The notes below the pieces were generated by a model. That model was not told where the DNA came from and did no database searches. It saw only the letters and a list, made by a program, of their open reading frames with translations. Source: Lysobacterales bacterium (GTDB taxonomy: Bacteria > Pseudomonadota > Gammaproteobacteria > Xanthomonadales > Marinicellaceae). Taken from it: a stretch of DNA of 64,000 nt. The first letter of the stretch is position 1. Every line of letters starts with the position of its first letter. The stretch is from positions 1-64,000 of the forward strand of contig JALSLV010000108.1 in the NCBI GenBank assembly GCA_026988115.1, read 5' to 3'. Below, in pieces: positions 4,313-31,427 of the stretch. Position numbers and translations under genes: made by a program.

Positions 4313-5554
4313 ATGTCAAATAACTTTTGTAAAACGACCTGCCTATTTTTACTACCAATGATTTTATTATCTACAAAATTATTGGCAGCCCCCAGTGATC
4401 ATTTTGTTACCACGTGGGAAACTACCGTTGGTGATACGATTATTACCATTCCAACTTTTCCGGGTGAAACTTATAGTTATGCCATTGACTGGGACAATGA
4501 CATGGTTCCTGATGAAACAGGTATCACAGGTGATGCCACACATGATTATGGTGTTGCTGGTGTACATACCATTCGTATATTTGGCACTTTTCCACAAATC
4601 TATTTTAATAATTCAGGTGATAAGGACAAGATATTAAGTATAGACCAATGGGGAACAAACTCTTGGGCTTCAATGGATAGTGCCTTTGAAGGCACATCAA
4701 ATTTAATCAATAAAGCCAGTGATATCCCTAATTTAAGTAATGTAGTTACACTATTACAAATGTTTTTTCAAGCAAGTTCTATAGGCTCACCATTAGATAC
4801 AGGTAATTGGAATTGGGACATAAGCAATGTTACAGCATTCGGTAGCATGTTTGACCAAGCTACATTATTCAACAAAGATATTGGTAACTGGGATACTACC
4901 AATGCTGAAATATTTTCAACCATGTTTCAAAACGCCTCATCATTTAACCAAGACATAAGCAATTGGTCAACAGCAAATGTTATCTCAATGGGCAGTATGT
5001 TCAATCATGCCACTTCATTTAATCAAGATTTAAGTGGTTGGAACTTTGAGGCTGTATTCTTAGGTTTTAATAATTTTCTTATAGATACACCTTTTTCAAC
5101 AGAAAATTATGATGCTTTATTGATCGCATGGGATAATCAAAATGTGCACTCTGGATTACTTCTTATTGTTGGTACTATTTCTTATTGTTCACAAGCAGCA
5201 GTTGATGCACGGGCAAACTTGACTACTAATGATGGCTGGATGATTACCGATGGTGGTCACACAAATGCTTGTGATGTTCTTTTTGAAAATAGCTTTGAAA
5301 ATGTTATTGTTGTTAAAACAGCTCGAAAACAAATCACTTATGATTTCTCAAAAATCAATCCAGACACATTGGGATACCAACCCGAAATTATCATAAAGGG
5401 TCTGGATGATAACAACAAAGTAAACATGAAAATACATATCAGAAATGATTTAGGCATTTTTCAAGTCAGAGCAAGTTACCTTAGAGATAAAAAGTGGTTA
5501 GCGCAGCAGTGGATAACGATAGAAAACAATAAAACAATAACATTACAATGGTGA
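4313..5554 (+). CDS. BspA-family (DUF285) repeat surface protein with internal FENSFE motif
   Basis: 413 residues with a signal peptide cleaved near residue 25. An N-terminal PKD-like beta domain (about 30-110) contains WDNDMVPDETG. BspA/DUF285 leucine-rich-type repeats follow (about 120-255), with the recurring unit D-I-S-N-V/W-x-T-x-N-x-x-x-F-x-x-M-F-x-x-A-x-x-F-N-x-D. Residues 323-329 read LFENSFE, like the terminal motif of the next gene, but 84 further residues of beta-rich sequence follow it. A GAGGAAAG ribosome binding site precedes the ATG. It is the first gene of a three-gene exported-protein operon and is probably exposed or secreted. BspA repeats often mediate adhesion, but no ligand can be inferred. 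Confidence 0.82.
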   Translation: MSNNFCKTTCLFLLPMILLSTKLLAAPSDHFVTTWETTVGDTIITIPTFPGETYSYAIDWDNDMVPDETGITGDATHDYGVAGVHTIRIFGTFPQIYFNNSGDKDKILSIDQWGTNSWASMDSAFEGTSNLINKASDIPNLSNVVTLLQMFFQASSIGSPLDTGNWNWDISNVTAFGSMFDQATLFNKDIGNWDTTNAEIFSTMFQNASSFNQDISNWSTANVISMGSMFNHATSFNQDLSGWNFEAVFLGFNNFLIDTPFSTENYDALLIAWDNQNVHSGLLLIVGTISYCSQAAVDARANLTTNDGWMITDGGHTNACDVLFENSFENVIVVKTARKQITYDFSKINPDTLGYQPEIIIKGLDDNNKVNMKIHIRNDLGIFQVRASYLRDKKWLAQQWITIENNKTITLQW

Positions 5555-5577
5555 ATAAAATGATTGGGGAAAACAAA

Positions 5578-8358
5578 ATGAAGAAATCGATACATTTATT
5601 AATATTAATACTCATAACATCTTCATCAGCATTTTCTGGGGTTCTAACTTGGTTAAATCCTCCTGAATTTGATATAGGCTATGAAGGAAATAGTGCCGAT
5701 AGTACAAGTTATCTCGGTATTTCAGCCAATGGTCAATACGTTACATTTGTAAGCACTTCATCCAACTTGGTTGCCAATGACACCAATGGCACTCAAGATT
5801 ATTATGTTAAAAATCTTGATACTGAGCAAATTACTATAATTAATACAGATGAACAAGGTGTTTTTCTTCCTTCATATTCTGTTGGAAATACGACTAACCC
5901 GACAAATGACGGCAAATTTATTGCCTTCACCAGTTCAGCAGATAGCTTGCCTTTTCCATCTAATAGCATTACAGCCTATCATTTGTACATTAAAGATATT
6001 GAGACAAATGCCGTTCATACACTATTATATAATGGTACAGCAGTTGTTACGACAGATTATCAAATTCATCTATCCTCAGATGGTTTATTTTTCTATTTTA
6101 CTACTGATGATTCCTTGGCTGCAAATGATTTAAACACGACAAGCGATGTCTATGTGTATGACAAAACCAATGCGACTTATGAACTTATAAGTATAGACAG
6201 TAATGGATTTGCCGCCGGTTTCTCTACGCTTCTCTCTGTTTCTAACAATGGTCGTTTCATCAACTTTGAATCAAATGGTGATGTATTACCCGTTGTCAAT
6301 GGCTTAACGGGAACTTTTGGTTTTATTCGTGATCTTGATTTTAGTACAACCAATATTTATACCGTTGATAACTTGGACGTACCAGTAGCTGACTCTTTGG
6401 ATGCCAGTGAAGTCTCAAATAATGGAGTCACTTATTTTTGTTCCTCAAGTGATCTTATTGATGCTAATGACAATAATGGCTTGAATGATTTGTTTGTCTA
6501 TGACGCGGGTATTGTCACTTTGTTTCCTTTTCCTAATATGGCTACAGGTATTAGTGATTTCGGATGTGATGAAACAACTAAAATTAATGTAAGCAACAAC
6601 AATTCAAAATTTTATTTGCTGCATCAATCTAACCAAATAGTTCCACCCATTATAAGCGATGGTAATAAAGTCATGTTTATCAACTTAACAACACAACAAA
6701 GTTTTATTGTCAGTCAAGTTAACAATGAAGGGTTTGAAGTTTTAAACCTAAATGCTTCTGATAATTTAAGTGATATTATCATCGCAACCAAATCAACTGT
6801 TGGTTTAGCAACAATTCAAAGCACGCAAATTAAGGCTGTGCACTTTAACAATCAGACAGGGTTTGATGTTATTTCAAAGGCTGTAACCCCACCTCAAATA
6901 CAAAATTCTTCAATTGGTGGAGGACATATATCTCATGACCTGAATTGGGTTGCGTATATGAGTAATGCCGACAATATAGTTCCGAGGGTTATCAATGAAA
7001 ATTCTAGGGATTTGTATTTAAAAAACCGCAATACAGGCGTAATAAACAGAATCGGTTATGAGTTGGAATACGAGCCATATGGTTTTAATGCATTTTTTAG
7101 TATGTCCAGCAATGGACGATACAGCGTTTTTAGAAGCAATTATTCGCAAGATGCATCACATACACTACTGGATAATGTTTACCTGTTTTTATACGACAAT
7201 TTTGATCAGAGTCATACTCAAATTGCCAGCTCGTGTAACAGCCCAAAAGTGAATAATGATGGAAATGTCGTTTTCTCTTCAACAAACGGTACATTAGTAG
7301 CCAATGACAATGGAGGCAGAGATGTTTTCATCTATGACAAGGTCAATGCCACTATTCAGATAATAAGCGTCAATGACCAGAATTTACCAGCTAATAATCT
7401 AAGTGAGACTCCAGATATAGGTGGTTCAGGAGTTTCTACATGGATTGTTTTTAGTTCTCGCGCTACTGATTTAATAGCCAATGATAATAACAACATGAAA
7501 GACGTCTTTATGGTTAACTGGCCTAGTGGGCAGATTTCCCGCATCTCTGAAATAACTGGTGTGGGAGGCGATTTATCCTCGGATAATCCACGTATATCAA
7601 GCGATACCACAACAATCACATTTGAAACAAAATCAAGTAATTTAATAGGAGCTGCAGCAACTAGCAACCCACAAGTTATGGTTTATGATAGAGTGCTAAA
7701 CTCTTTAAATGTTATCAGCTATGACTATTTAGGCGGCTTTGCAGGAACGTATATAAATAATCCAATGCCCTCAGCTAATGGCAGATTCATTGCATTTCAC
7801 ACCACAGTCAAAGTGGTAATAAATGACACTAACAATGATTTTGATATTTATGTATTTGATAGGCAAACAAATCAAATGACTCGAATTAGCCAATACCAAG
7901 ATGGCACAGATTATGACACACATTCTATTCTTTATGACCTGATTGTTGATGATAGCCAAAACCCACCATTAATCAATGTATTGTTTTATAGTCAAAATCA
8001 TCTTATTAATAATTATTTTGGTTTAAACATACCACCAATTTCTAACCAACAACTCTATTTAATGCAATCTGGAGGCACACCTAAAAGCATACAACTTGAC
8101 ATAACTGGAAATGGTGAAGTTGTAGACAATATAGGCTTTAACTGCATAACTAACTGTTCACAAACCTACGAATTGGGTCAAAGTGTTACACTCACAGCAA
8201 CTGCAAACAGTGGTTCTGCATTTATGCACTGGCAGGGAGATGAATGTAACAATTCTAGCAACTTAAATTGTACTGTTTATATCAATGACAATAAATCAAT
8301 ACAAGCTATTTTTGCAACAGTCACTGACACGATTTTTAATAACGGTTTTGAAAACTAA
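5578..8358 (+). CDS. Secreted beta-propeller protein with C-terminal repeat domain and NGFE tail
   Basis: About 926 residues from the ATG at 5578, which has GGGGAA at good spacing and leads straight into a signal peptide (MKKSIHLLILILITSSSAFS). An upstream in-frame ATG at 5548 overlaps the preceding stop and is less likely. Most of the protein is a series of 40-60 residue units of TolB/WD40-like type, for example ISANGQYVTFVSTSSNL followed by V-A-N-D-x-N-x-x-x-D-x-Y-V. The C-terminal 80 residues (ITGNGEVV, LTATANSGSAFMHWQGD) resemble the divergent InlB B-repeat fold. The protein ends IFNNGFEN, a short terminal motif shared with the protease at 29994. Probably extracellular; ligand unknown. 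Confidence 0.8.
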   Translation: MKKSIHLLILILITSSSAFSGVLTWLNPPEFDIGYEGNSADSTSYLGISANGQYVTFVSTSSNLVANDTNGTQDYYVKNLDTEQITIINTDEQGVFLPSYSVGNTTNPTNDGKFIAFTSSADSLPFPSNSITAYHLYIKDIETNAVHTLLYNGTAVVTTDYQIHLSSDGLFFYFTTDDSLAANDLNTTSDVYVYDKTNATYELISIDSNGFAAGFSTLLSVSNNGRFINFESNGDVLPVVNGLTGTFGFIRDLDFSTTNIYTVDNLDVPVADSLDASEVSNNGVTYFCSSSDLIDANDNNGLNDLFVYDAGIVTLFPFPNMATGISDFGCDETTKINVSNNNSKFYLLHQSNQIVPPIISDGNKVMFINLTTQQSFIVSQVNNEGFEVLNLNASDNLSDIIIATKSTVGLATIQSTQIKAVHFNNQTGFDVISKAVTPPQIQNSSIGGGHISHDLNWVAYMSNADNIVPRVINENSRDLYLKNRNTGVINRIGYELEYEPYGFNAFFSMSSNGRYSVFRSNYSQDASHTLLDNVYLFLYDNFDQSHTQIASSCNSPKVNNDGNVVFSSTNGTLVANDNGGRDVFIYDKVNATIQIISVNDQNLPANNLSETPDIGGSGVSTWIVFSSRATDLIANDNNNMKDVFMVNWPSGQISRISEITGVGGDLSSDNPRISSDTTTITFETKSSNLIGAAATSNPQVMVYDRVLNSLNVISYDYLGGFAGTYINNPMPSANGRFIAFHTTVKVVINDTNNDFDIYVFDRQTNQMTRISQYQDGTDYDTHSILYDLIVDDSQNPPLINVLFYSQNHLINNYFGLNIPPISNQQLYLMQSGGTPKSIQLDITGNGEVVDNIGFNCITNCSQTYELGQSVTLTATANSGSAFMHWQGDECNNSSNLNCTVYINDNKSIQAIFATVTDTIFNNGFEN

Positions 8359-24648: not shown

Positions 24649-25086
24649 ATGTGTTATTGTGCAAGAATGAGAGAGAAAATTTTTATAGACCCCGCTTTTT
24701 TGCGGAAATCAAACTATTCGTATGTGAATTATGACGACACGGAACTGGGTACGGTTTTGTGTTTTGCTTTGGCGCGCAATAATAATGATTTAATTCTTCA
24801 CCAACAAAGAATTGAACACAATGCAAAATCTTCTGCTAAAAATGTATTATTTACCTCAATTGTCGATTTGTTTATTGCTCTGGGTGAAAAAGGTCAAGAC
24901 TATAAAAGTCGAATATTAGATAAGTACAGAAAAAAACTCAGCAGCTACCAAACCCTTCTGCTAACAAGGTCTCTAGTCAAAACCATTGATAAAACAGATG
25001 CTATTGTGGGTTTAAACCAATCTCTGTTGAGCTTTGGCTTGACTGGAAAACCCTTAACTTCTGAATTGATTAAGCATCTCAAATGA
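24649..25086 (+). CDS. Unknown protein, first gene of the GTPase locus
   Basis: 145 residues from ATG 24649; ATG 24667 (MREKIFIDPAF) is an alternative, and neither has a strong ribosome site. The N-terminal third is beta-rich (KSNYSYVNYDDTELG), the rest helical and basic (DKYRKKLSSYQTLLLTRSLVKTIDKTD). No signal peptide, no membrane segment, no family recognised. The stop overlaps the next start by 4 bases (ATGA), so it is translationally coupled to the pseudo-receiver protein and is probably part of the same system. Confidence 0.6.
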   Translation: MCYCARMREKIFIDPAFLRKSNYSYVNYDDTELGTVLCFALARNNNDLILHQQRIEHNAKSSAKNVLFTSIVDLFIALGEKGQDYKSRILDKYRKKLSSYQTLLLTRSLVKTIDKTDAIVGLNQSLLSFGLTGKPLTSELIKHLK

Positions 25087-26288
25087 ATATTCAACACAAT
25101 TCCAAATTAAAAATTAGTTTAAATAATCTCGATGACATTACACAAAATACCTTAAAGTTTTTCTTTAAAAGTAACCTTTGTGAAAAAGCCGAGTTAAACA
25201 TCAATGATGATAACGCCAATGTCTTAATTATTGATTTGGATAGACAATACAATAAAGAAATTATTCCAAACTTAAAAAAGAGCAATCAGTTTGTGATTTT
25301 TTTGCATAATGAAATGAACACCCCATTATCAGAAGAAAACACTTACAACGTTACCAAACCAGTGCAGGTTAAATATTTAAAACAACAACTTTCTTTTATT
25401 GCTCAACGCATTAATGATATTGAAGAAAGTAATGATGACTCAGGCAAAGTTAATACAAACAGTTTTGCAGCAACCGCTAAACATGCACAATCAAAACCTT
25501 CAAGTCAATCCCTTGGATTAATCAACAACAAAAGCCCTACTCAAAATTTCAAAAACAACCATTTGAATATGGCTCTAAAAAAGTCAACGGATTCAAGTAC
25601 ACTCAATCAATACAAGGCTCATAAACATGTTGGTTCCAATAGAGACATTAATCCCGACAACCCTGAAGAGCTAAAAAAGATTTACCATAACCCTAAAAAA
25701 TATTTATACCACCACCTCGTACAAGCGGTGAAATTGGGTAAAGATAATAAGACTGATGTTTTGATTAAAACACTGTTCGGTAGTTTATTTTTTGATTATA
25801 AATCGCAAATACTATTTCATTCTTTTGACAAAGCCAAAATGCGCTATTTCAAGTCAAGTCCTCTTTTTATTGAGACAAAAATTGTAAAAACTTCTTTATC
25901 TGAGAAAGCAAAAAAAGATTATTCGATAGGTCAAAATGCTGAAAGCCTAATTTGGCAATCGGCGATCAGTGCAAGCAAGGGGAGAGTTCCGTTGGGAACC
26001 AGTCTGACTCAAACCATAGAAATGACTTCATGGCCAAATTTTTCACGCCTTTTGGTTTTTCGGTATGTTATTCAGATTGCAGCAGCATGGTCAACTCACC
26101 ACATGTCTTTGCTTGATACGGCTTCTCAATTAAAAATACCACAGCGATATATTTTCACCTTATATAACGCGATGCTTGCAATAGAGTCCGCAAAAATCAA
26201 TAATGTAATCGACAACACAAAAAAGATTAATAGAGATAAAAAAAAATCAGTATTTTCAAAAATTTTATCTCATATATTTAACCATTAA
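25083..26288 (+). CDS. Pseudo-receiver protein A of the GTPase/roadblock locus
   Basis: 401 residues, soluble. Residues 8-110 have the order of a response-regulator receiver: beta-alpha start KISLNNLDDITQNTLKFFF, a beta strand ending in Asp (NVLIIDLDRQY), a further strand VIFLHN, and a terminal V-T-K-P-V followed by a helix. The acidic pair at the start is missing, so phosphorylation is doubtful. A low-complexity linker (111-185) leads to a C-terminal domain with YKAHKHVGSNRDINP, WPNFSRLLVFR and IPQRYIFTLYNAM, ending FSKILSHIFNH. A full paralogue lies at 27559. Function unknown; probable partner of the GTPase 15 bases downstream. Confidence 0.72.
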   Translation: MNIQHNSKLKISLNNLDDITQNTLKFFFKSNLCEKAELNINDDNANVLIIDLDRQYNKEIIPNLKKSNQFVIFLHNEMNTPLSEENTYNVTKPVQVKYLKQQLSFIAQRINDIEESNDDSGKVNTNSFAATAKHAQSKPSSQSLGLINNKSPTQNFKNNHLNMALKKSTDSSTLNQYKAHKHVGSNRDINPDNPEELKKIYHNPKKYLYHHLVQAVKLGKDNKTDVLIKTLFGSLFFDYKSQILFHSFDKAKMRYFKSSPLFIETKIVKTSLSEKAKKDYSIGQNAESLIWQSAISASKGRVPLGTSLTQTIEMTSWPNFSRLLVFRYVIQIAAAWSTHHMSLLDTASQLKIPQRYIFTLYNAMLAIESAKINNVIDNTKKINRDKKKSVFSKILSHIFNH

Positions 26289-26303
26289 ATTAATTTAGTA
26301 AAT

Positions 26304-26843
26304 ATGAAAAGCAACCATAAAATTATATTTTCTGGGCCTGTTGGCGCTGGTAAAACAACTGCCATCACGTCTATTAGTGATATTCCCACAGTCAGAACAG
26401 AAGAAGCCGCTTCTGACGAAACAAAAGACCTAAAAGACACCACCACAGTCGCATTGGATTATGGTGCAATCATCTTACAAGATAGTACTCGCATTCATCT
26501 GTATGGAACCCCTGGACAAAAACGATTTGACTTTATGTGGGAAATATTAACCAATGGTGGCATAGGTCTGTTACTTTTAATTGATGGCAGTGACTCCAAT
26601 GCCATTAAGAATTTAAAGTTTTTTCTTTCAAGTTTTAAAAACTTTATTAACAAAACCAGTGTTGTTGTTGGAATAACTAAACAAGATGTGAATAAAAAAT
26701 ACAATTTGGAAGAGTATCAGGAAGTTCTCAATAAAGGTTTACCAGTTGTGCCTATCTATGAAATAGATGCACGTTCGAAAAAAGATGTTTCACTAATGGT
26801 TGAAACATTGCTGTATACACTCGATCCAAAAATTTCAATTTAA
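26304..26843 (+). CDS. Small Ras-like GTPase of the MglA/conservon (COG2229-like) type
   Basis: 179 residues. P-loop GPVGAGKTT (11-19), switch I Thr in DTTTVALDYG (46-54), switch II YGTPGQKRF (67-75), and base recognition TKQD (125-128) with DAR near 156. Gly replaces the Asp of the usual DxxG, and TPGQ retains the catalytic-position Gln; this variant is typical of the bacterial GTPases paired with roadblock proteins. It likely cycles between GDP and GTP states under control of the roadblock-type proteins encoded nearby. 15 bases downstream of the pseudo-receiver gene and 3 bases before the next. Confidence 0.9.
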   Translation: MKSNHKIIFSGPVGAGKTTAITSISDIPTVRTEEAASDETKDLKDTTTVALDYGAIILQDSTRIHLYGTPGQKRFDFMWEILTNGGIGLLLLIDGSDSNAIKNLKFFLSSFKNFINKTSVVVGITKQDVNKKYNLEEYQEVLNKGLPVVPIYEIDARSKKDVSLMVETLLYTLDPKISI

Positions 26844-26846
26844 AAC

Positions 26847-27476
26847 ATGTCAAATTCTGTCACTCAATACATTTTACCAACACCGGCAGGTGCTTATTTT
26901 TTAGCTCAAGATAGCACCCAAAGTTGGCAAAAAAAAGTACTGCAAAATTTATTTTCCTCGGATAAATCTCTGAAATTAGACCTCAAAATTTTAAAGGAAA
27001 TTTTCAATACCACGGACTCTGAAAATTTAACATATAAAATCGAACAGTGCCAAAAGCAACATCTTATTCAGGTTGTTGATGAAGAGATTTCTGCACCAAC
27101 TGGTGATTTTGAACACAACTTAAATGACATTATCTGCAAATTTTCCAACAAAGAAAAAGCTTTATTGTGCGATTCTCAGGGCTTATGCATTGCCAACAAT
27201 GGCTTTCCCATTGAAATGCAAGAAGAAATATCTGTGCTTTCGGCTGATATTGCCATCATGCACAAAAGAAGAGCGCAAAACATCAATAAAAAACTTAGGT
27301 TAAATTCACAGGCTTGGTCAATCGTAGATGCGTCAGGCAACAGTTGCTTGGGGTTTTGGCCACTCAATATCAATAAAGAAGTTTTCGTATTGGTTCTTGA
27401 AGGCGTGCCTTTTTTCAATCAAATAGCAATGGTTGATCTTATTTGGACTCTCTATTTAAGGTATGGTAAAAGTTAG
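26847..27476 (+). CDS. Roadblock-like protein following the GTPase
   Basis: 209 residues, soluble. The C-terminal half (about 95-190) resembles a roadblock/LC7 domain: KALLCDSQGLCIANNG, then EEISVLSADIAIMHKR, then AWSIVDASGNSCLGFWPL, then VFVLVLEGVPFF, the expected strand-helix-strand pattern. The N-terminal half is probably a helical or winged domain (SSDKSLKLDLKILKEIF) that might recognise the GTPase or a target. It starts 3 bases after the GTPase stop. Assigning it as a GTPase regulator rests on fold pattern and position. Confidence 0.65.
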   Translation: MSNSVTQYILPTPAGAYFLAQDSTQSWQKKVLQNLFSSDKSLKLDLKILKEIFNTTDSENLTYKIEQCQKQHLIQVVDEEISAPTGDFEHNLNDIICKFSNKEKALLCDSQGLCIANNGFPIEMQEEISVLSADIAIMHKRRAQNINKKLRLNSQAWSIVDASGNSCLGFWPLNINKEVFVLVLEGVPFFNQIAMVDLIWTLYLRYGKS

Positions 27477-27558
27477 GATTACGACAAAAAAACTAGGATT
27501 AATCTAAAACTTAATTTATGCTTGTCATGCCCAGTAAAAACAATTATCATTATCAAGT

Positions 27559-28713
27559 ATGAACAGACCAAATATTGCCAACATTGTTTTAAGTAACCTT
27601 GATACGCTAACCGAGAACACTCTGGCCTATTTTATTAACTCAAACCTGTGCCAAAATGCAAAACTGGCGCTTTCCCAAAACAATATTCACATTTATATTT
27701 TAGATTTAGATAGAAAATACGATGAATACCTTATACAAAATGTCGAATTGCACCAACAACACATAATTGGCATTCATTTAGATTCTGAGCAAAATCCACT
27801 CAGTAACCGCATGACTCTTGTCAAAAAGCCACTGAATGTTTCCGAATTAACAAAGGCAATTGATAAGGTGCACCAAGAATTATTTAAACCTCCAGTTTTA
27901 CCAACGCCTAACAAAGAAACCAAGACAAAGCATTCAGCAAAAATAAAACATAAAGACCAAACTCACCGAAATCTTTACAATGCGATAGATGAAGAAAAAA
28001 ATGAAGACGATATCCACCTAAGGTATAAGGCACAAAGATATGTCGGCAATAACGAGGATGTCGACCCACAGACGGATGATTTACAAAAAATCTATATTAA
28101 TGCAGAAAATTACTTTTTTAGCTCTTTGCTTGAAGCGTTGTCAGCAGGACAATCTAACAGAAGTACTGTTGGCATTAAAACCAGCCTCGGAACTATGATT
28201 TATCATTACAAAGAAAATTTAATCAGCCATGACATTGAAAAAAACAAACTTAAACTATTACAAACAACGCCATTAATTAATCAGGCATCTAAATTTTCTT
28301 TAAATTCTTCACCGCCTTTTAAAGAGCACGTCATGGATGCCATAAGTTTTGCATGGGACACAGTGATTCAAACCAGCAAAGGGAGGTTGCCAGAAAATAC
28401 CAACTTAATTAAACCTGTCATTCTTTTAACTTGGCCTAATTTTACTAAACTTCGCATTTTTAGGCACGCCATTCCAATTACAGCCCTTTGGTCAAGACAA
28501 AGAATTTCCTTAGTAGAAACAGCCAAACTACTCGTTGTTCCACAGCGCTATGTATTTTCTCTATACGGTGCAATGAATGCTTTGGGTTATGCAAAGATAG
28601 GTAAATTTGAAGATGAAGTCACTCAGAAAAGCAAAGTAATTAAGCCATTATCACAACAGAACAACTCAAACTTTTTTTCAAAAATTATGAGTCATCTCTT
28701 TAAACGCAAATAA
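27559..28713 (+). CDS. Pseudo-receiver protein B, paralogue of the 25083 gene
   Basis: 384 residues, collinear with protein A: receiver-like N-terminus (LSNLDTLTENTLAYFI, IYILDLDRKYDEYL, LVKKPLNVSELTKAI), a charged linker (about 112-158), and a C-terminal domain with YKAQRYVGNNEDVDP, WPNFTKLRIFRH and VPQRYVFSLYGAMNALGYAKI, ending FSKIMSHLFKRK. The shared C-terminal F-S-K-I-x-S-H-x-F peptide suggests a docking or membrane-contact element. An 82-bp gap separates it from the preceding gene. Unlike A, its linker is acidic then basic, implying divergent partners. Function unknown. Confidence 0.7.
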   Translation: MNRPNIANIVLSNLDTLTENTLAYFINSNLCQNAKLALSQNNIHIYILDLDRKYDEYLIQNVELHQQHIIGIHLDSEQNPLSNRMTLVKKPLNVSELTKAIDKVHQELFKPPVLPTPNKETKTKHSAKIKHKDQTHRNLYNAIDEEKNEDDIHLRYKAQRYVGNNEDVDPQTDDLQKIYINAENYFFSSLLEALSAGQSNRSTVGIKTSLGTMIYHYKENLISHDIEKNKLKLLQTTPLINQASKFSLNSSPPFKEHVMDAISFAWDTVIQTSKGRLPENTNLIKPVILLTWPNFTKLRIFRHAIPITALWSRQRISLVETAKLLVVPQRYVFSLYGAMNALGYAKIGKFEDEVTQKSKVIKPLSQQNNSNFFSKIMSHLFKRK

Positions 28714-28723
28714 CGGTCTGTTT

Positions 28724-29467
28724 TTATTCAAGTAAGTCCGAACCCAGTGAAAGCAGTTCTTTAAAACTCAAAACCTCATCTTTAGTCACTGGTATAAATT
28801 TTTCTACATTGATGCTGTCTAAAACAAATCGACCTTTTTCATCGTCATGGGCTTCTGTTAATATTTGGGTAAGTCTTGGGGCTTTATCTAAATGTTTGCT
28901 CTTGACAAAAACCGAATGAAATATGCTTTTTTCACTGGTTTCACCAATTTTTGTAATCATACTTTGGCTCAGTTTATTCAATCCATCATAAAAATCTTTA
29001 TAAACAAACCCATAAGGTTTTTCACCCTGACTAACCGCTTTAACAACCGCCATCCAATTGGCTTTGGAGTATATCTTGCTCGGTTTTATGTCTTTTTCAA
29101 GCAAGCCTTTGATTCCCACTCTCGTAACCATCATGCCATTACAACTAATGCATTCACTACCATTTAGCACCTCAAGCGAACTTGAGTCGACATCATTATT
29201 GGCGATAAAAACTATTTCATCGTATAAATTTGTTGAATGAGCCAATGGCACAAAGTCGTGGTTTTCAATCAAATCCAAAGAATCTTGAGGATTGGCGTAT
29301 GCCATATCAGCAGTGGGCATTTTTTCGTGAAACTCAATAAAATCCAAACATTTATAATAAGTTGTACTGGTTTTGCAGTACTTTGTTAAATACAAAGCAA
29401 ACTCAAACCATTTCAACGGATCTCCTGCTGTGTCATGAGGGCAAACCATCAAATTCATACTGGACAT
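28724..29467 (-). CDS. Substrate-binding-protein-like (PhnD-type) protein lacking a signal peptide
   Basis: 247 residues. The middle resembles periplasmic phosphonate/phosphate-type binding proteins: ADMAYANPQDSLDLIENHDFVPLAHS, then EIVFIANND, then a helix and PYGFVYKDFYDGL. The N-terminus (MSSMNLMVCPHDTAGDPLKW) is not a signal peptide, and there is no lipobox or membrane segment, so the protein should stay in the cytoplasm. No ABC transporter genes are near. It lies 28 bases downstream of the roadblock gene, suggesting it senses a small ligand for the GTPase system (inference). The TTTTCTCC upstream on the plus strand is its GGAGAAAA ribosome site. Confidence 0.65.
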   Translation of the reverse strand: MSSMNLMVCPHDTAGDPLKWFEFALYLTKYCKTSTTYYKCLDFIEFHEKMPTADMAYANPQDSLDLIENHDFVPLAHSTNLYDEIVFIANNDVDSSSLEVLNGSECISCNGMMVTRVGIKGLLEKDIKPSKIYSKANWMAVVKAVSQGEKPYGFVYKDFYDGLNKLSQSMITKIGETSEKSIFHSVFVKSKHLDKAPRLTQILTEAHDDEKGRFVLDSINVEKFIPVTKDEVLSFKELLSLGSDLLE

Positions 29468-29495
29468 AATTTTCTCCTATCGTAAGGGGTTTTGC

Positions 29496-29858
29496 TTAAA
29501 TTAACTCGGATGTCTTTTTCGCTGCACGTTTAACATCTAAAAAGATTAAACCTAATTTTGCATTGGCTTTTGCCATGACTGTTAAAACAGCATCTTCTCC
29601 TGCTTTGACCATTAAGACATAACCATTATCGCCTTTGATAAGAACTTGATCCAACCCCCCTCGCTCTAACTCTTGAGCTGTTCTATCGCCTAGTGACAGC
29701 ATGGCTGCACTCATTGCACCCATTCTGTCTTCATCAATACTTGATGGCAACTGCGATGCCATTATCAATCCATCTGTAGAAATAATCGCCGAAGCCTCTA
29801 CATCTGCTGATGAACTATTGAGCTCATTTAGTATGTTGTTCAACATATCAATTCTCAT
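29496..29858 (-). CDS. Roadblock/LC7 domain protein (MglB-like)
   Basis: 120 residues, a single roadblock domain: a first helix MLNNILNELNSSSADV, strand ASAIISTDGLIMASQLP, central helix DRMGAMSAAMLSLGDRTAQEL, and strands QVLIKGDNGYVLMVKAG and AVLTVMAKANAKLGLIFLDV. Such proteins dimerise and act as activators of, or scaffolds for, Ras-like GTPases (MglB for MglA; CvnB in conservons). TAGGAG lies 7 bases before the ATG. It heads a two-gene operon convergent with the GTPase operon. Confidence 0.92.
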   Translation of the reverse strand: MRIDMLNNILNELNSSSADVEASAIISTDGLIMASQLPSSIDEDRMGAMSAAMLSLGDRTAQELERGGLDQVLIKGDNGYVLMVKAGEDAVLTVMAKANAKLGLIFLDVKRAAKKTSELI

Positions 29859-29993: not shown

Positions 29994-31427
29994 TTACTCA
30001 AACCCATTTGTAAAAACAAAATCAAGTCTTGCTTGATTAACCGCTGCCAGTGCATCTAAGCGCCCCCAACCAAAGGTGTTGTTCGGTATTTGGCTTCCTG
30101 GTGTTCCATTGCAATCTTGAGTCGATGTTTTTGCTACACTTGAATCCATGATAATTTGTTTTATCAATGCAGGTTGCCCTGCTAAACTTGGATCTGCTGA
30201 AATCAATAACGCAGCAACGCCTGCCACATGAGGCGATGCCATGCTGGTTCCACTCATGTTACCATAACCTCCGCTTTTCAAACTGGATCGAATCGAACTG
30301 CCAGGAGCGGAAACATCTGGTTTTATGCGATTACTGCCATCAACGGTGACTGCACCACGGGAACTAAAACTAGAAATGGTATCTGAAGATGTGGTTGAGC
30401 CAACGGTAAAAGTTTTATCGTAAATTGCAATTGGATCTCTGACTGTTCCACAACCAGAACCACTATTGCCTGCAGCGGCGACCACTATAATACCCGCATC
30501 AACGACATTATTGATGATAGATTCTAATCCATTAGGCTGGGTGCAACCTTCACCAAAAGTACAACCCCATGAATTATTAATGATATGGGGTGCTTTAGTG
30601 ACATCAGGATTTAACCCATTTAAATCAGTGGGTTCAAGAAAGAACTGAAAACATTCGGTATAAGTTTGTGGAGTTCCATTACCTTGATCCATATTTCGGC
30701 AACCAATCCACTTTGCATCTGGTGCTATTCCGACTTGATTACCAGCTCCATCATCTCCGACCATTGTTCCCATGGTATGAGTGCCATGACCGTGATCATC
30801 AAATGGAGCATTGAAGACATGTATGGCATCATGCCAACGGTAGTTATGATTAACACTAACACCATCCCAGCCAGCATATTTTTCTTTTAAAGCAACATGA
30901 TCCCATTTATAACCCGTATCTTGACCTGCAATGATAACATTTTGACCTTTAAAACCTAAAGCCCAAACAGCAGGAGCATTGATCATATTAGAACCCCAAC
31001 CAACGGCAGAAATTGATTTTTGAACGGGTGAATCATTATCAATAATTGCCAATTTTTGTGGAGTATTGGCAAAAGCTTTCTTGACTTGGGTGTTTTGAAC
31101 TATTATTTTTGCATTCTGACTACTGGCTTTCACCCAGACTGAATTATTAATCCAATAGAATTGGTAGTCCTGAGCATAATTTTTCAACTCTGATTCAATT
31201 TGAGTTTGACTGGATTTTGCATTATTTTTTAATTGAGCAATAACAAATTTTAATCGCTCAATTCTATTTTTATTCGCTAATGTTTTAATTGCTTTTGTGT
31301 TATCTAACAACAAATACATCTCAACGGATTCTTTACTTCTTAAATCGGACTGAAGTTGAGTTGAGATTTTATTGTCTGCAGCAACAACAATTGGTAATAA
31401 CAATAGGGTAAAAAATATTTTATTCAT
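29994..31427 (-). CDS. Secreted subtilisin-like (S8) serine protease with NGFE tail
   Basis: 477 residues with a signal peptide (to about residue 17) and an inhibitor-like propeptide (about 20-125). The catalytic domain has Asp170 (GQDTGYKWDH), His214 (HGHGTHTMG), oxyanion Asn321 (AAGNSG) and Ser395 (GTSMASPHVAG). Cys pairs around WGCTFGEGC and GSGCGT suggest disulphides. The last residues, VFTNGFE, match the short C-terminal motif of the propeller protein at 5578, so both may use the same export or processing route (inference). Probably extracellular. Confidence 0.93.
   Translation of the reverse strand: MNKIFFTLLLLPIVVAADNKISTQLQSDLRSKESVEMYLLLDNTKAIKTLANKNRIERLKFVIAQLKNNAKSSQTQIESELKNYAQDYQFYWINNSVWVKASSQNAKIIVQNTQVKKAFANTPQKLAIIDNDSPVQKSISAVGWGSNMINAPAVWALGFKGQNVIIAGQDTGYKWDHVALKEKYAGWDGVSVNHNYRWHDAIHVFNAPFDDHGHGTHTMGTMVGDDGAGNQVGIAPDAKWIGCRNMDQGNGTPQTYTECFQFFLEPTDLNGLNPDVTKAPHIINNSWGCTFGEGCTQPNGLESIINNVVDAGIIVVAAAGNSGSGCGTVRDPIAIYDKTFTVGSTTSSDTISSFSSRGAVTVDGSNRIKPDVSAPGSSIRSSLKSGGYGNMSGTSMASPHVAGVAALLISADPSLAGQPALIKQIIMDSSVAKTSTQDCNGTPGSQIPNNTFGWGRLDALAAVNQARLDFVFTNGFE

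What the first reader, a model, noticed from the sequence alone, without database searches (positions are those of the whole stretch)
24649..29858. Conservon-like GTPase/roadblock locus with unrecognised pseudo-receiver proteins
Two convergent operons combine a Ras-like GTPase (GTPGQ switch), a classical roadblock/LC7 protein, a second roadblock-like protein, two paralogous receiver-like proteins, an unknown 145-residue protein and a cytoplasmic binding-protein-like gene. Streptomyces conservons share the GTPase and roadblock parts but use a histidine kinase and DUF742, which are not seen here. Overlaps of 4, 3 and 15 bases suggest tight coupling. It may be a GTPase polarity or sensing module of its own type.
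Basis: partly seen in the sequence, partly recalled or inferred. Interest (0 to 1): 0.8.

Follow-up and report, generated by a model that had tools for sequence, protein, structure and literature searches.

The report
MglA Group 3 GTPase signalling cluster
This stretch carries a conserved bacterial switch-protein cluster whose core was described in 2014; around that core sit small sensor proteins that suggest it reads oxygen, redox or ligand signals, perhaps to steer surface pili.

Summary
The seven genes are real and correctly placed, but only one of the three 'overlaps' is an overlap. The core is not a new type: it fits the Group 3 MglA systems of beta/gammaproteobacteria described in 2014 (PMC4316618): a GTPase with GTPGQ and DAR motifs, one or two MglB/roadblock proteins, and a receiver-plus-winged-helix protein. 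The 'unrecognised pseudo-receiver' was recognised there. What that text does not mention is the wider cassette. In 51 non-redundant loci with the second roadblock protein and at least 4.5 kb on both sides, the receiver protein and LC7 occur in 51, the '145-residue unknown' family in 47, and a stand-alone sensor-type gene in 39 (aerotaxis-receptor-type PAS, phosphonate-binding-like protein, protoglobin, CZB, FIST). Long members of the unknown family end in a TPR like one of FimV; the window copy lacks it. Best reading: a small-GTPase signalling module fed by interchangeable cytoplasmic sensors, with type IV pili or polarity as a likely but unproven output. Known kind, new variant in composition.

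The parts
24649..25086 (+). U: 145-aa all-helical protein, short form of a family whose long form adds a FimV-like TPR domain
   Evidence: Family converges with the 212-aa Psychrobacter protein (72 of 73 members shared); model all helical, only weak TPR-like matches; C-terminal TPR of long members matches FimV, hhalign E 1.8e-12
25083..26288 (+). PRa: atypical receiver domain (about 8-120), variable linker, C-terminal domain with winged-helix-like end
   Evidence: Profile matches receivers in PDB, best E 2.6e-4; VIA Z 11.6, residues 4-124; D51, K92 and P93 present
26304..26843 (+). Ras-like GTPase, MglA family (GTPGQ; DAR; Thr and no Arg in G2)
   Evidence: (best PDB matches MglA of Thermus and Myxococcus, E 2e-7 to 5e-7)
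26847..27476 (+). RB2: divergent roadblock (MglB-like) protein, roadblock match at about profile positions 89-143, with a separate N-terminal part
   Evidence: not significant against LC7
27559..28713 (+). PRb: second copy of the receiver protein (32% identical to PRa)
   Evidence: duplicated P also in L193 and L195
28724..29467 (-). SBP: phosphonate-binding-like protein, cytoplasmic by eye (no signal peptide seen), divergent subfamily
   Evidence: PF12974 E 4.5e-15; 70% identical to a copy in G009 (L191), 22% to the second copy in the same genome
29496..29858 (-). LC7: roadblock/LC7 (MglB-type) protein, 120 aa
   Evidence: PF03259 E 2.9e-18; D29-G30 invariant in 24 rows; 98% identical second copy at G000:C102 beside a PAS and an SBP gene

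Best explanation
A Group 3 MglA signalling module. Shown by sequence: one small GTPase (G), two roadblock-type regulators (LC7 and RB2), an atypical receiver plus winged-helix-like protein (P, duplicated here) and a helical protein (U), related in its long form to a TPR of the polar landmark protein FimV, form one conserved gene set. Stand-alone sensor-type proteins are encoded with it in most well-covered loci: aerotaxis-receptor-type PAS, phosphonate-binding-like SBP, and in single lineages protoglobin, CZB or FIST. Inferred: the sensors act on the LC7/RB2 pair or on P and so set the GTP/GDP state of G; G-GTP then acts through U and P on a polar output, most likely type IV pilus activity or positioning, much as Myxococcus MglA works with MglB/MglC, RomR and the TPR protein SgmX. 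In this genome the sensing side is split between the window (LC7 + SBP) and a second LC7-PAS-SBP cassette elsewhere.
For: Conserved gene order U-P-G-R-L(-A-S) or L-A-S-U-P-G-R. Of 51 loci with R and >=4.5 kb on both sides, within 6 kb of G: P 51, L 51, U 47, A 30, S 32, any sensor type 39; of 63 GTPase loci without R: P 39, L 40, U 1, A 3, S 2. GTPases of R-type loci cluster on the tree: 9 changes against a shuffled mean of 58. GTPGQ, DAR and no G2 Arg, as the paper gives for Group 3. PAS best PDB match is an aerotaxis receptor, E 4.1e-36. Protoglobin (8 ORFs; two pairs are one locus fetched twice, so 6 loci), CZB (2) and FIST (2, same genus) all lie within 1.3 kb of the GTPase, although 109 of the 210 loci reach over 7 kb on both sides. 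U TPR matches FimV. Second LC7-PAS-SBP cassette in the same genome. Precedents: a globin-roadblock fusion protein (PMC4476040, passages); a Snodgrassella orphan mglB mutant with altered colony edges read as changed T4P-dependent motility (PMC11112851, abstract and passages); MglA-GTP binds the TPR protein SgmX (PMC7519303, outline with abstract).
Against: No interaction, nucleotide or motility data for any of these genes. T4P output is weakly supported: PilB-type ATPases pass the family cut-off in 264 of 370 genomes, so presence discriminates little; a PilB/GspE-type ATPase lies in only 4 of 73 core loci, and no FimV N-terminus in any locus. The window's U lacks the FimV-like TPR. 12 of the 51 loci show no sensor gene. 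Three genomes carry P and R with no GTPase gene between them and no GTPase hit at 1e-20 (G188, G145, G375, the last one in 670 pieces), so the GTPase seems dispensable somewhere. RB2 and LC7 are not significantly alike. The winged helix in P could point to gene regulation instead.
Confidence: 0.55

Rival explanations
1. Same module, but the output is transcription: the receiver protein P binds DNA with its winged helix under control of the GTPase, as PMC4316618 suggests.
For: Published fold prediction (section 18); the model ends in three helices between two short strands at 311-372.
Against: The C-terminal domain was not placed here: the structural rows cover residues 6-122; no DNA-binding family is listed for 30 members at E<=1, and only 3 of 30 reach even Response_reg, best 0.014.
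Confidence: 0.25
2. Two neighbouring but separate systems: the U-P-G-R-P operon, and an LC7-SBP sensor pair facing it that serves another target.
For: Opposite strands in this genus; clear Shine-Dalgarno sites by eye upstream of the minus genes but not of the plus genes; a second LC7-PAS-SBP cassette stands apart from the GTPase at G000:C102.
Against: In 51 of 51 well-covered loci LC7 lies within 6 kb of G and R, and outside this genus on the same strand wherever one search lists it; the two LC7 copies are 98% identical.
Confidence: 0.15
3. A diverged Streptomyces-type conservon.
For: GTPase and roadblock shared; DAR motif shared with Group 2; the RB2 profile's best PDB match is cvnB5.
Against: No histidine kinase or DUF742 family in any of the seven proteins; outside Actinobacteria.
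Confidence: 0.02
4. Chance neighbours without joint function.
For: Patchy presence: 41 of 61 genomes (own genome and 60 relatives) have a GTPase hit at E<=0.001, many of them remote.
Against: Conserved order over Comamonadaceae, Moraxellaceae, Halothiobacillaceae, Marinicella and unnamed families.
Confidence: 0.03

Closest known systems
Group 3 MglA systems (PMC4316618)
   Same: GTPGQ in G3, DAR in G5, no Arg in G2; one GTPase with one or two MglB-type proteins; receiver-like plus winged-helix-like partner; beta/gammaproteobacteria
   Different: The main text holds no mention of PAS, phosphonate, FimV, globin, CZB, tetratricopeptide or aerotaxis (its supplements not seen); here P is duplicated and LC7/SBP are on the opposite strand
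Snodgrassella Group 3 mgl locus (PMC11112851)
   Same: mglA with two coupled mglB genes plus a separate 121-aa mglB, comparable with the 120-aa LC7 (size only compared)
   Different: No mention of PAS domain, globin, phosphonate, FimV, aerotaxis or tetratricopeptide in the main text; homology of the orphan mglB with LC7 not tested here
Myxococcus polarity module MglA-MglB/MglC-RomR-SgmX
   Same: Parts list by type: small GTPase, two roadblock proteins, receiver protein, TPR protein (from abstracts and PMC4316618)
   Different: Group 1 GTPase (TVPGQ, intrinsic Arg finger), mglA not beside its partners' genes; no homology shown between U and SgmX or between P and RomR
Streptomyces conservon CvnA-D
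   Same: GTPase plus roadblock
   Different: Histidine kinase and DUF742 absent here; solo sensors instead
HGbRL globin-roadblock fusion of Methylacidiphilum (PMC4476040)
   Same: Globin sensing joined to a roadblock domain
   Different: One fused protein; the passages read place it in an operon with a methyltransferase, not with a receiver protein

Membership tests
Group 3 MglA system | G3 motif GTPGQ (shared by Groups 2-5) | tested here: met
   G68 T69 P70 G71 Q72 invariant in 25 rows; criterion
Group 3 MglA system | No Arg, but Thr, beside the conserved G2 Thr (shared by Groups 2-5) | tested here: met
   T47-T48 invariant in 25 rows; criterion
Group 3 MglA system | DAR in G5 (Groups 2 and 3) | tested here: met
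   Window DAR; 21 of 25 rows DAR, 3 DGR, 1 DPR
Group 3 MglA system | G4 motif deviates from [NT]KxD, often without Lys | tested here: inconclusive
   Window keeps TKQD; 7 of 25 rows have TKxD, most others TRxD, TQxD or THxx
Group 3 MglA system | Coupled to one or two MglB homologues | tested here: met
   LC7 clear; RB2 only at family level, not significant
Group 3 MglA system | Coupled protein with receiver-like N-terminus and variable linker | tested here: met
Group 3 MglA system | Winged-helix-like C-terminus of that protein | tested here: inconclusive
   Seen only as a secondary-structure pattern at 311-372
Group 3 MglA system | Groups with published Group 3 GTPases (Neisseria, Xanthomonas, Stenotrophomonas) in a tree | not tested
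   No published Group 3 reference was placed in the tree
Conservon | CvnA-type histidine kinase in the operon | tested here: not met
   No kinase family in the seven proteins
Conservon | CvnC (DUF742) in the operon | tested here: not met
Group 1 MglA (Myxococcus type) | TVPGQ and intrinsic Arg finger | tested here: not met
   criterion
FimV/HubP | FimV_core and FimV_Cterm domains | tested here: not met
   Window U has neither; of five other U members scanned one has a FimV_Cterm hit below cut-off, E 0.0062; three FimV ORFs hit by the U profile have both

The most novel reading that the evidence does not exclude
A GTPase-based chemosensory module: small stand-alone input domains of kinds otherwise used by chemoreceptors (Aer-type PAS, protoglobin, zinc-binding CZB, FIST, ligand-binding SBP) plug into a roadblock/MglA switch instead of a CheA kinase, and the output, through a receiver protein and a FimV-like TPR adaptor, steers polar type IV pili: a pilus-based aerotaxis or energy taxis without histidine kinase.
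Probability: 0.3. Interest if true: 0.85.

Novelty: new variant of a known kind. Interest (0 to 1): 0.55.

Why it matters
Group 3 MglA systems have no known input or output in the sections read, and the only experimental work on one that my searches turned up is the Snodgrassella mglB mutant. The linked sensor genes name testable inputs (redox, haem-bound gas, zinc, a small ligand) and the FimV-like TPR names a testable output. If right, a Ras-like switch replaces the histidine kinase in a bacterial taxis pathway that occurs in many Beta- and Gammaproteobacteria.

Tried and rejected
Conservon membership: rejected. Own-type novelty of the core: rejected after PMC4316618. T4P co-occurrence as a test: PilB-type ATPases too widespread (342 of 370 genomes at E<=1e-100, 264 of 370 over the cut-off). 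RB2 against LC7 by profile comparison: not significant. U145 fold: no Foldseek match with E<=0.001, only weak TPR-like ones; its N-terminal part did not match FimV (probability 0.6%). PRa by Foldseek: no match at E<=0.001, best named receiver 2b4a E 8e-3. The P C-terminal domain was not identified. The 121-aa receiver beside the second cassette (L212:7799-8164) looks like PilH from memory, but the NCBIfam and PDB searches name only other receivers, so it is not used as evidence. PilC in L114 is named by eye; PilB there by Pfam T2SSE+MshEN. That CZB, FIST, protoglobin and Aer-type PAS are chemoreceptor input domains is partly recalled.

Circularity told: profiles A5 (SBP) and A2 (U) contain rows from genomes of the 370. 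SBP at E<=1e-50: 22 of 370 genomes, 20 with a GTPase hit (72 of 370); without the 9 source genomes 11 of 13. U at E<=1e-27: 38 of 370 genomes, 33 with a GTPase hit; without the 16 source genomes 17 of 22 (counted by hand). The Fisher values use the uncorrected counts and ignore relatedness. In one search the loci were chosen by GTPase similarity, not by partners, but the partner profiles were trained on ORFs of the same 210 loci; 22 of the 73 R-type loci were dropped for short flanks, and the 63 control loci include Chloroflexota and Actinomycetota. I fetched flanks for most, not all, of the GTPase places. The list of matches was cut off, so the share of FimV hits is not a full count.

Literature: nine answered searches listed no paper whose title or abstract describes such a sensor cassette with a Group 3 GTPase; most subscription papers and all supplements were out of reach, including the gene-neighbourhood table of PMC4316618.
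Full report
1. Observation. The seven ORFs lie where the finding puts them. The plus operon (U 24649-25086, PRa 25083-26288, GTPase 26304-26843, RB2 26847-27476, PRb 27559-28713) converges on the minus operon (LC7 29858-29496, SBP 29467-28724), with 10 bases between stops. Only U/PRa overlap (4 bases); the other two values quoted as overlaps are gaps of 15 and 3. Pfam names the GTPase, the SBP (PF12974, E 4.5e-15) and the LC7 protein (PF03259, E 2.9e-18); U, PRa, PRb and RB2 have no significant Pfam or NCBIfam family.

2. Conservation. Iterated profiles from the window proteins show one gene set in Comamonadaceae, Moraxella, Psychrobacter, Halothiobacillaceae, Marinicella and many unnamed families. 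Orders are U-P-G-R-L-A-S or L-A-S-U-P-G-R (A = PAS protein, S = SBP). 91 of 210 loci have G with R; 73 remain after removal of near-identical GTPases. Of the 51 with at least 4.5 kb on both sides, within 6 kb of G: P 51, L 51, U 47, A 30, S 32. Of 63 GTPase loci without R: P 39, L 40, U 1, A 3, S 2. On a tree of 189 GTPases all 73 R-type rows fall in one group of 97 rows, though the group is not exclusive and its base is only moderately supported (SH-aLRT 90).

3. What the core is. The GTPase has GTPGQ, Thr-Thr without Arg in G2, and DAR in G5. PMC4316618 (sections 13, 14, 15, 18) gives these as features of Group 3 MglA (GTPGQ and the G2 Thr shared by Groups 2-5, DAR by Groups 2 and 3), found almost only in beta/gammaproteobacteria, coupled to one or two MglBs and a protein with a receiver-like N-terminus, variable linker and winged-helix-like C-terminus. 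That is P-G-R-L. The window G4 motif, TKQD, is the ordinary one, which Group 3 often lacks; 7 of 25 rows have TKxD. So the core is known.

4. The receiver protein. The family profile finds receivers in the PDB, best E 2.6e-4. The AlphaFold model of PRa (mean pLDDT 76.5) gives no Foldseek match at E<=0.001 (best named receiver 2b4a, E 8e-3) but VIA Z up to 11.6 over residues 4-124 (PleD, rmsd 2.6, 117 aligned). In 83 aligned rows the Asp at the end of strand 3 is D in 64 and N in 13, the Lys is K in 54, the following Pro is P in 82; position 15, just after strand 1, is G in 62 and N in 13. From general knowledge of receivers (recalled), an acidic pair is expected near there; its loss with retention of Asp and Lys makes this an atypical receiver. 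Whether it is phosphorylated cannot be told.

5. U. The 145-aa unknown and the 212-aa Psychrobacter protein converge on one family (72 of 73). The window model is all helical (mean pLDDT 70, core about 80-92) with only weak TPR-like matches. Long members add a C-terminal TPR. Searched over 370 genomes, the U profile hits, beside operon copies, ORFs mostly of 700-1200 aa, usually once per genome, in the part of the list shown; three of three checked carry FimV_core and FimV_Cterm, and the U TPR aligns to a TPR of these with hhalign probability 97.7% and E 1.8e-12. The window U lacks this part.

6. Sensors. The A protein's best PDB match is an aerotaxis receptor (E 4.1e-36). Protoglobin sits beside the core genes in six distinct loci (L114, L121, L124, L138, L160 = L008, L196 = L089), CZB in two (L116, and L131, which lacks R), FIST in two of one genus (L146, L159), an MCP-type protein downstream in one (L136). 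All protoglobin, CZB and FIST ORFs found by these queries in the 210 loci lie within 1.3 kb of the GTPase, while 109 of the 210 loci reach over 7 kb on both sides. With A and S, 39 of 51 loci show a sensor-type gene; 12 show none. A globin-roadblock fusion protein is known from Methylacidiphilum (PMC4476040, passages), where the authors propose relay from globin to roadblock.

7. This genome. A second cassette LC7 (98% identical) - PAS (154 aa) - SBP (252 aa) lies at G000:C102. In G009 of the same genus (L191) L-S-L-A-S lies beside P-R-G-P-U in one place. So the window carries one piece of a split set, and its SBP is a divergent subfamily (22% identical to the other copy).

8. Mechanism. Inferred: sensors alter LC7/RB2 or P, these set the GTPase, and the GTPase acts through U and P. 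The parts match by type the Myxococcus polarity module, where MglA-GTP acts on the TPR protein SgmX to promote pilus formation (PMC7519303, outline with abstract). In Snodgrassella, whose mglA is assigned to Group 3, a mutation in an orphan mglB gave flares at colony edges on soft agar, read by the authors as altered pilus-dependent motility (PMC11112851, abstract and passages). Direct gene links to pili are few: PilB downstream in L114 and a PilB/GspE-type ATPase in 4 of 73 core loci.

9. Results that do not fit. G188, G145 and G375 have P and R (in G375 one ORF matches both U and RB2) without a GTPase gene between them, and no GTPase hit at 1e-20 in the genome, though G375 is in 670 pieces. 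RB2 and LC7 are not significantly alike by profile comparison. PilB presence is uninformative.

10. Verdict. Known kind (Group 3 MglA), new variant in composition. Output to pili is plausible, not shown.

Noticed in passing
window 5548-8358 + and 29994-31427 -; own genome: Two window proteins end in F-x-N-G-F-E(N). The coding pattern for FxNGFE plus stop (or TGG) occurs 23 times in the genome against 0 for the reversed control: possibly a short C-terminal sorting tail.
   Followed up: partly
L219 (G188), L221 (G145), L220 (G375): Operons with U, P and R but no GTPase gene between P and R, and no GTPase hit at 1e-20 elsewhere in those genomes.
   Followed up: partly
L212:7799-8164 (G000:C102): Stand-alone 121-aa receiver convergent with the second LC7-PAS-SBP cassette; resembles PilH from memory only.
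   Followed up: partly
window 29499-29858 and G000:C102:80463-80822: The two LC7 proteins are 98% identical while the neighbouring SBPs share 22%, which hints at gene conversion or strong constraint on LC7.
   Followed up: no
L034, L038-L043, L046-L052 (named Microbacteriaceae or Actinomycetota in part): GTPases near this family outside Pseudomonadota, several with an LC7 gene directly behind and a P-like protein near by.
   Followed up: no
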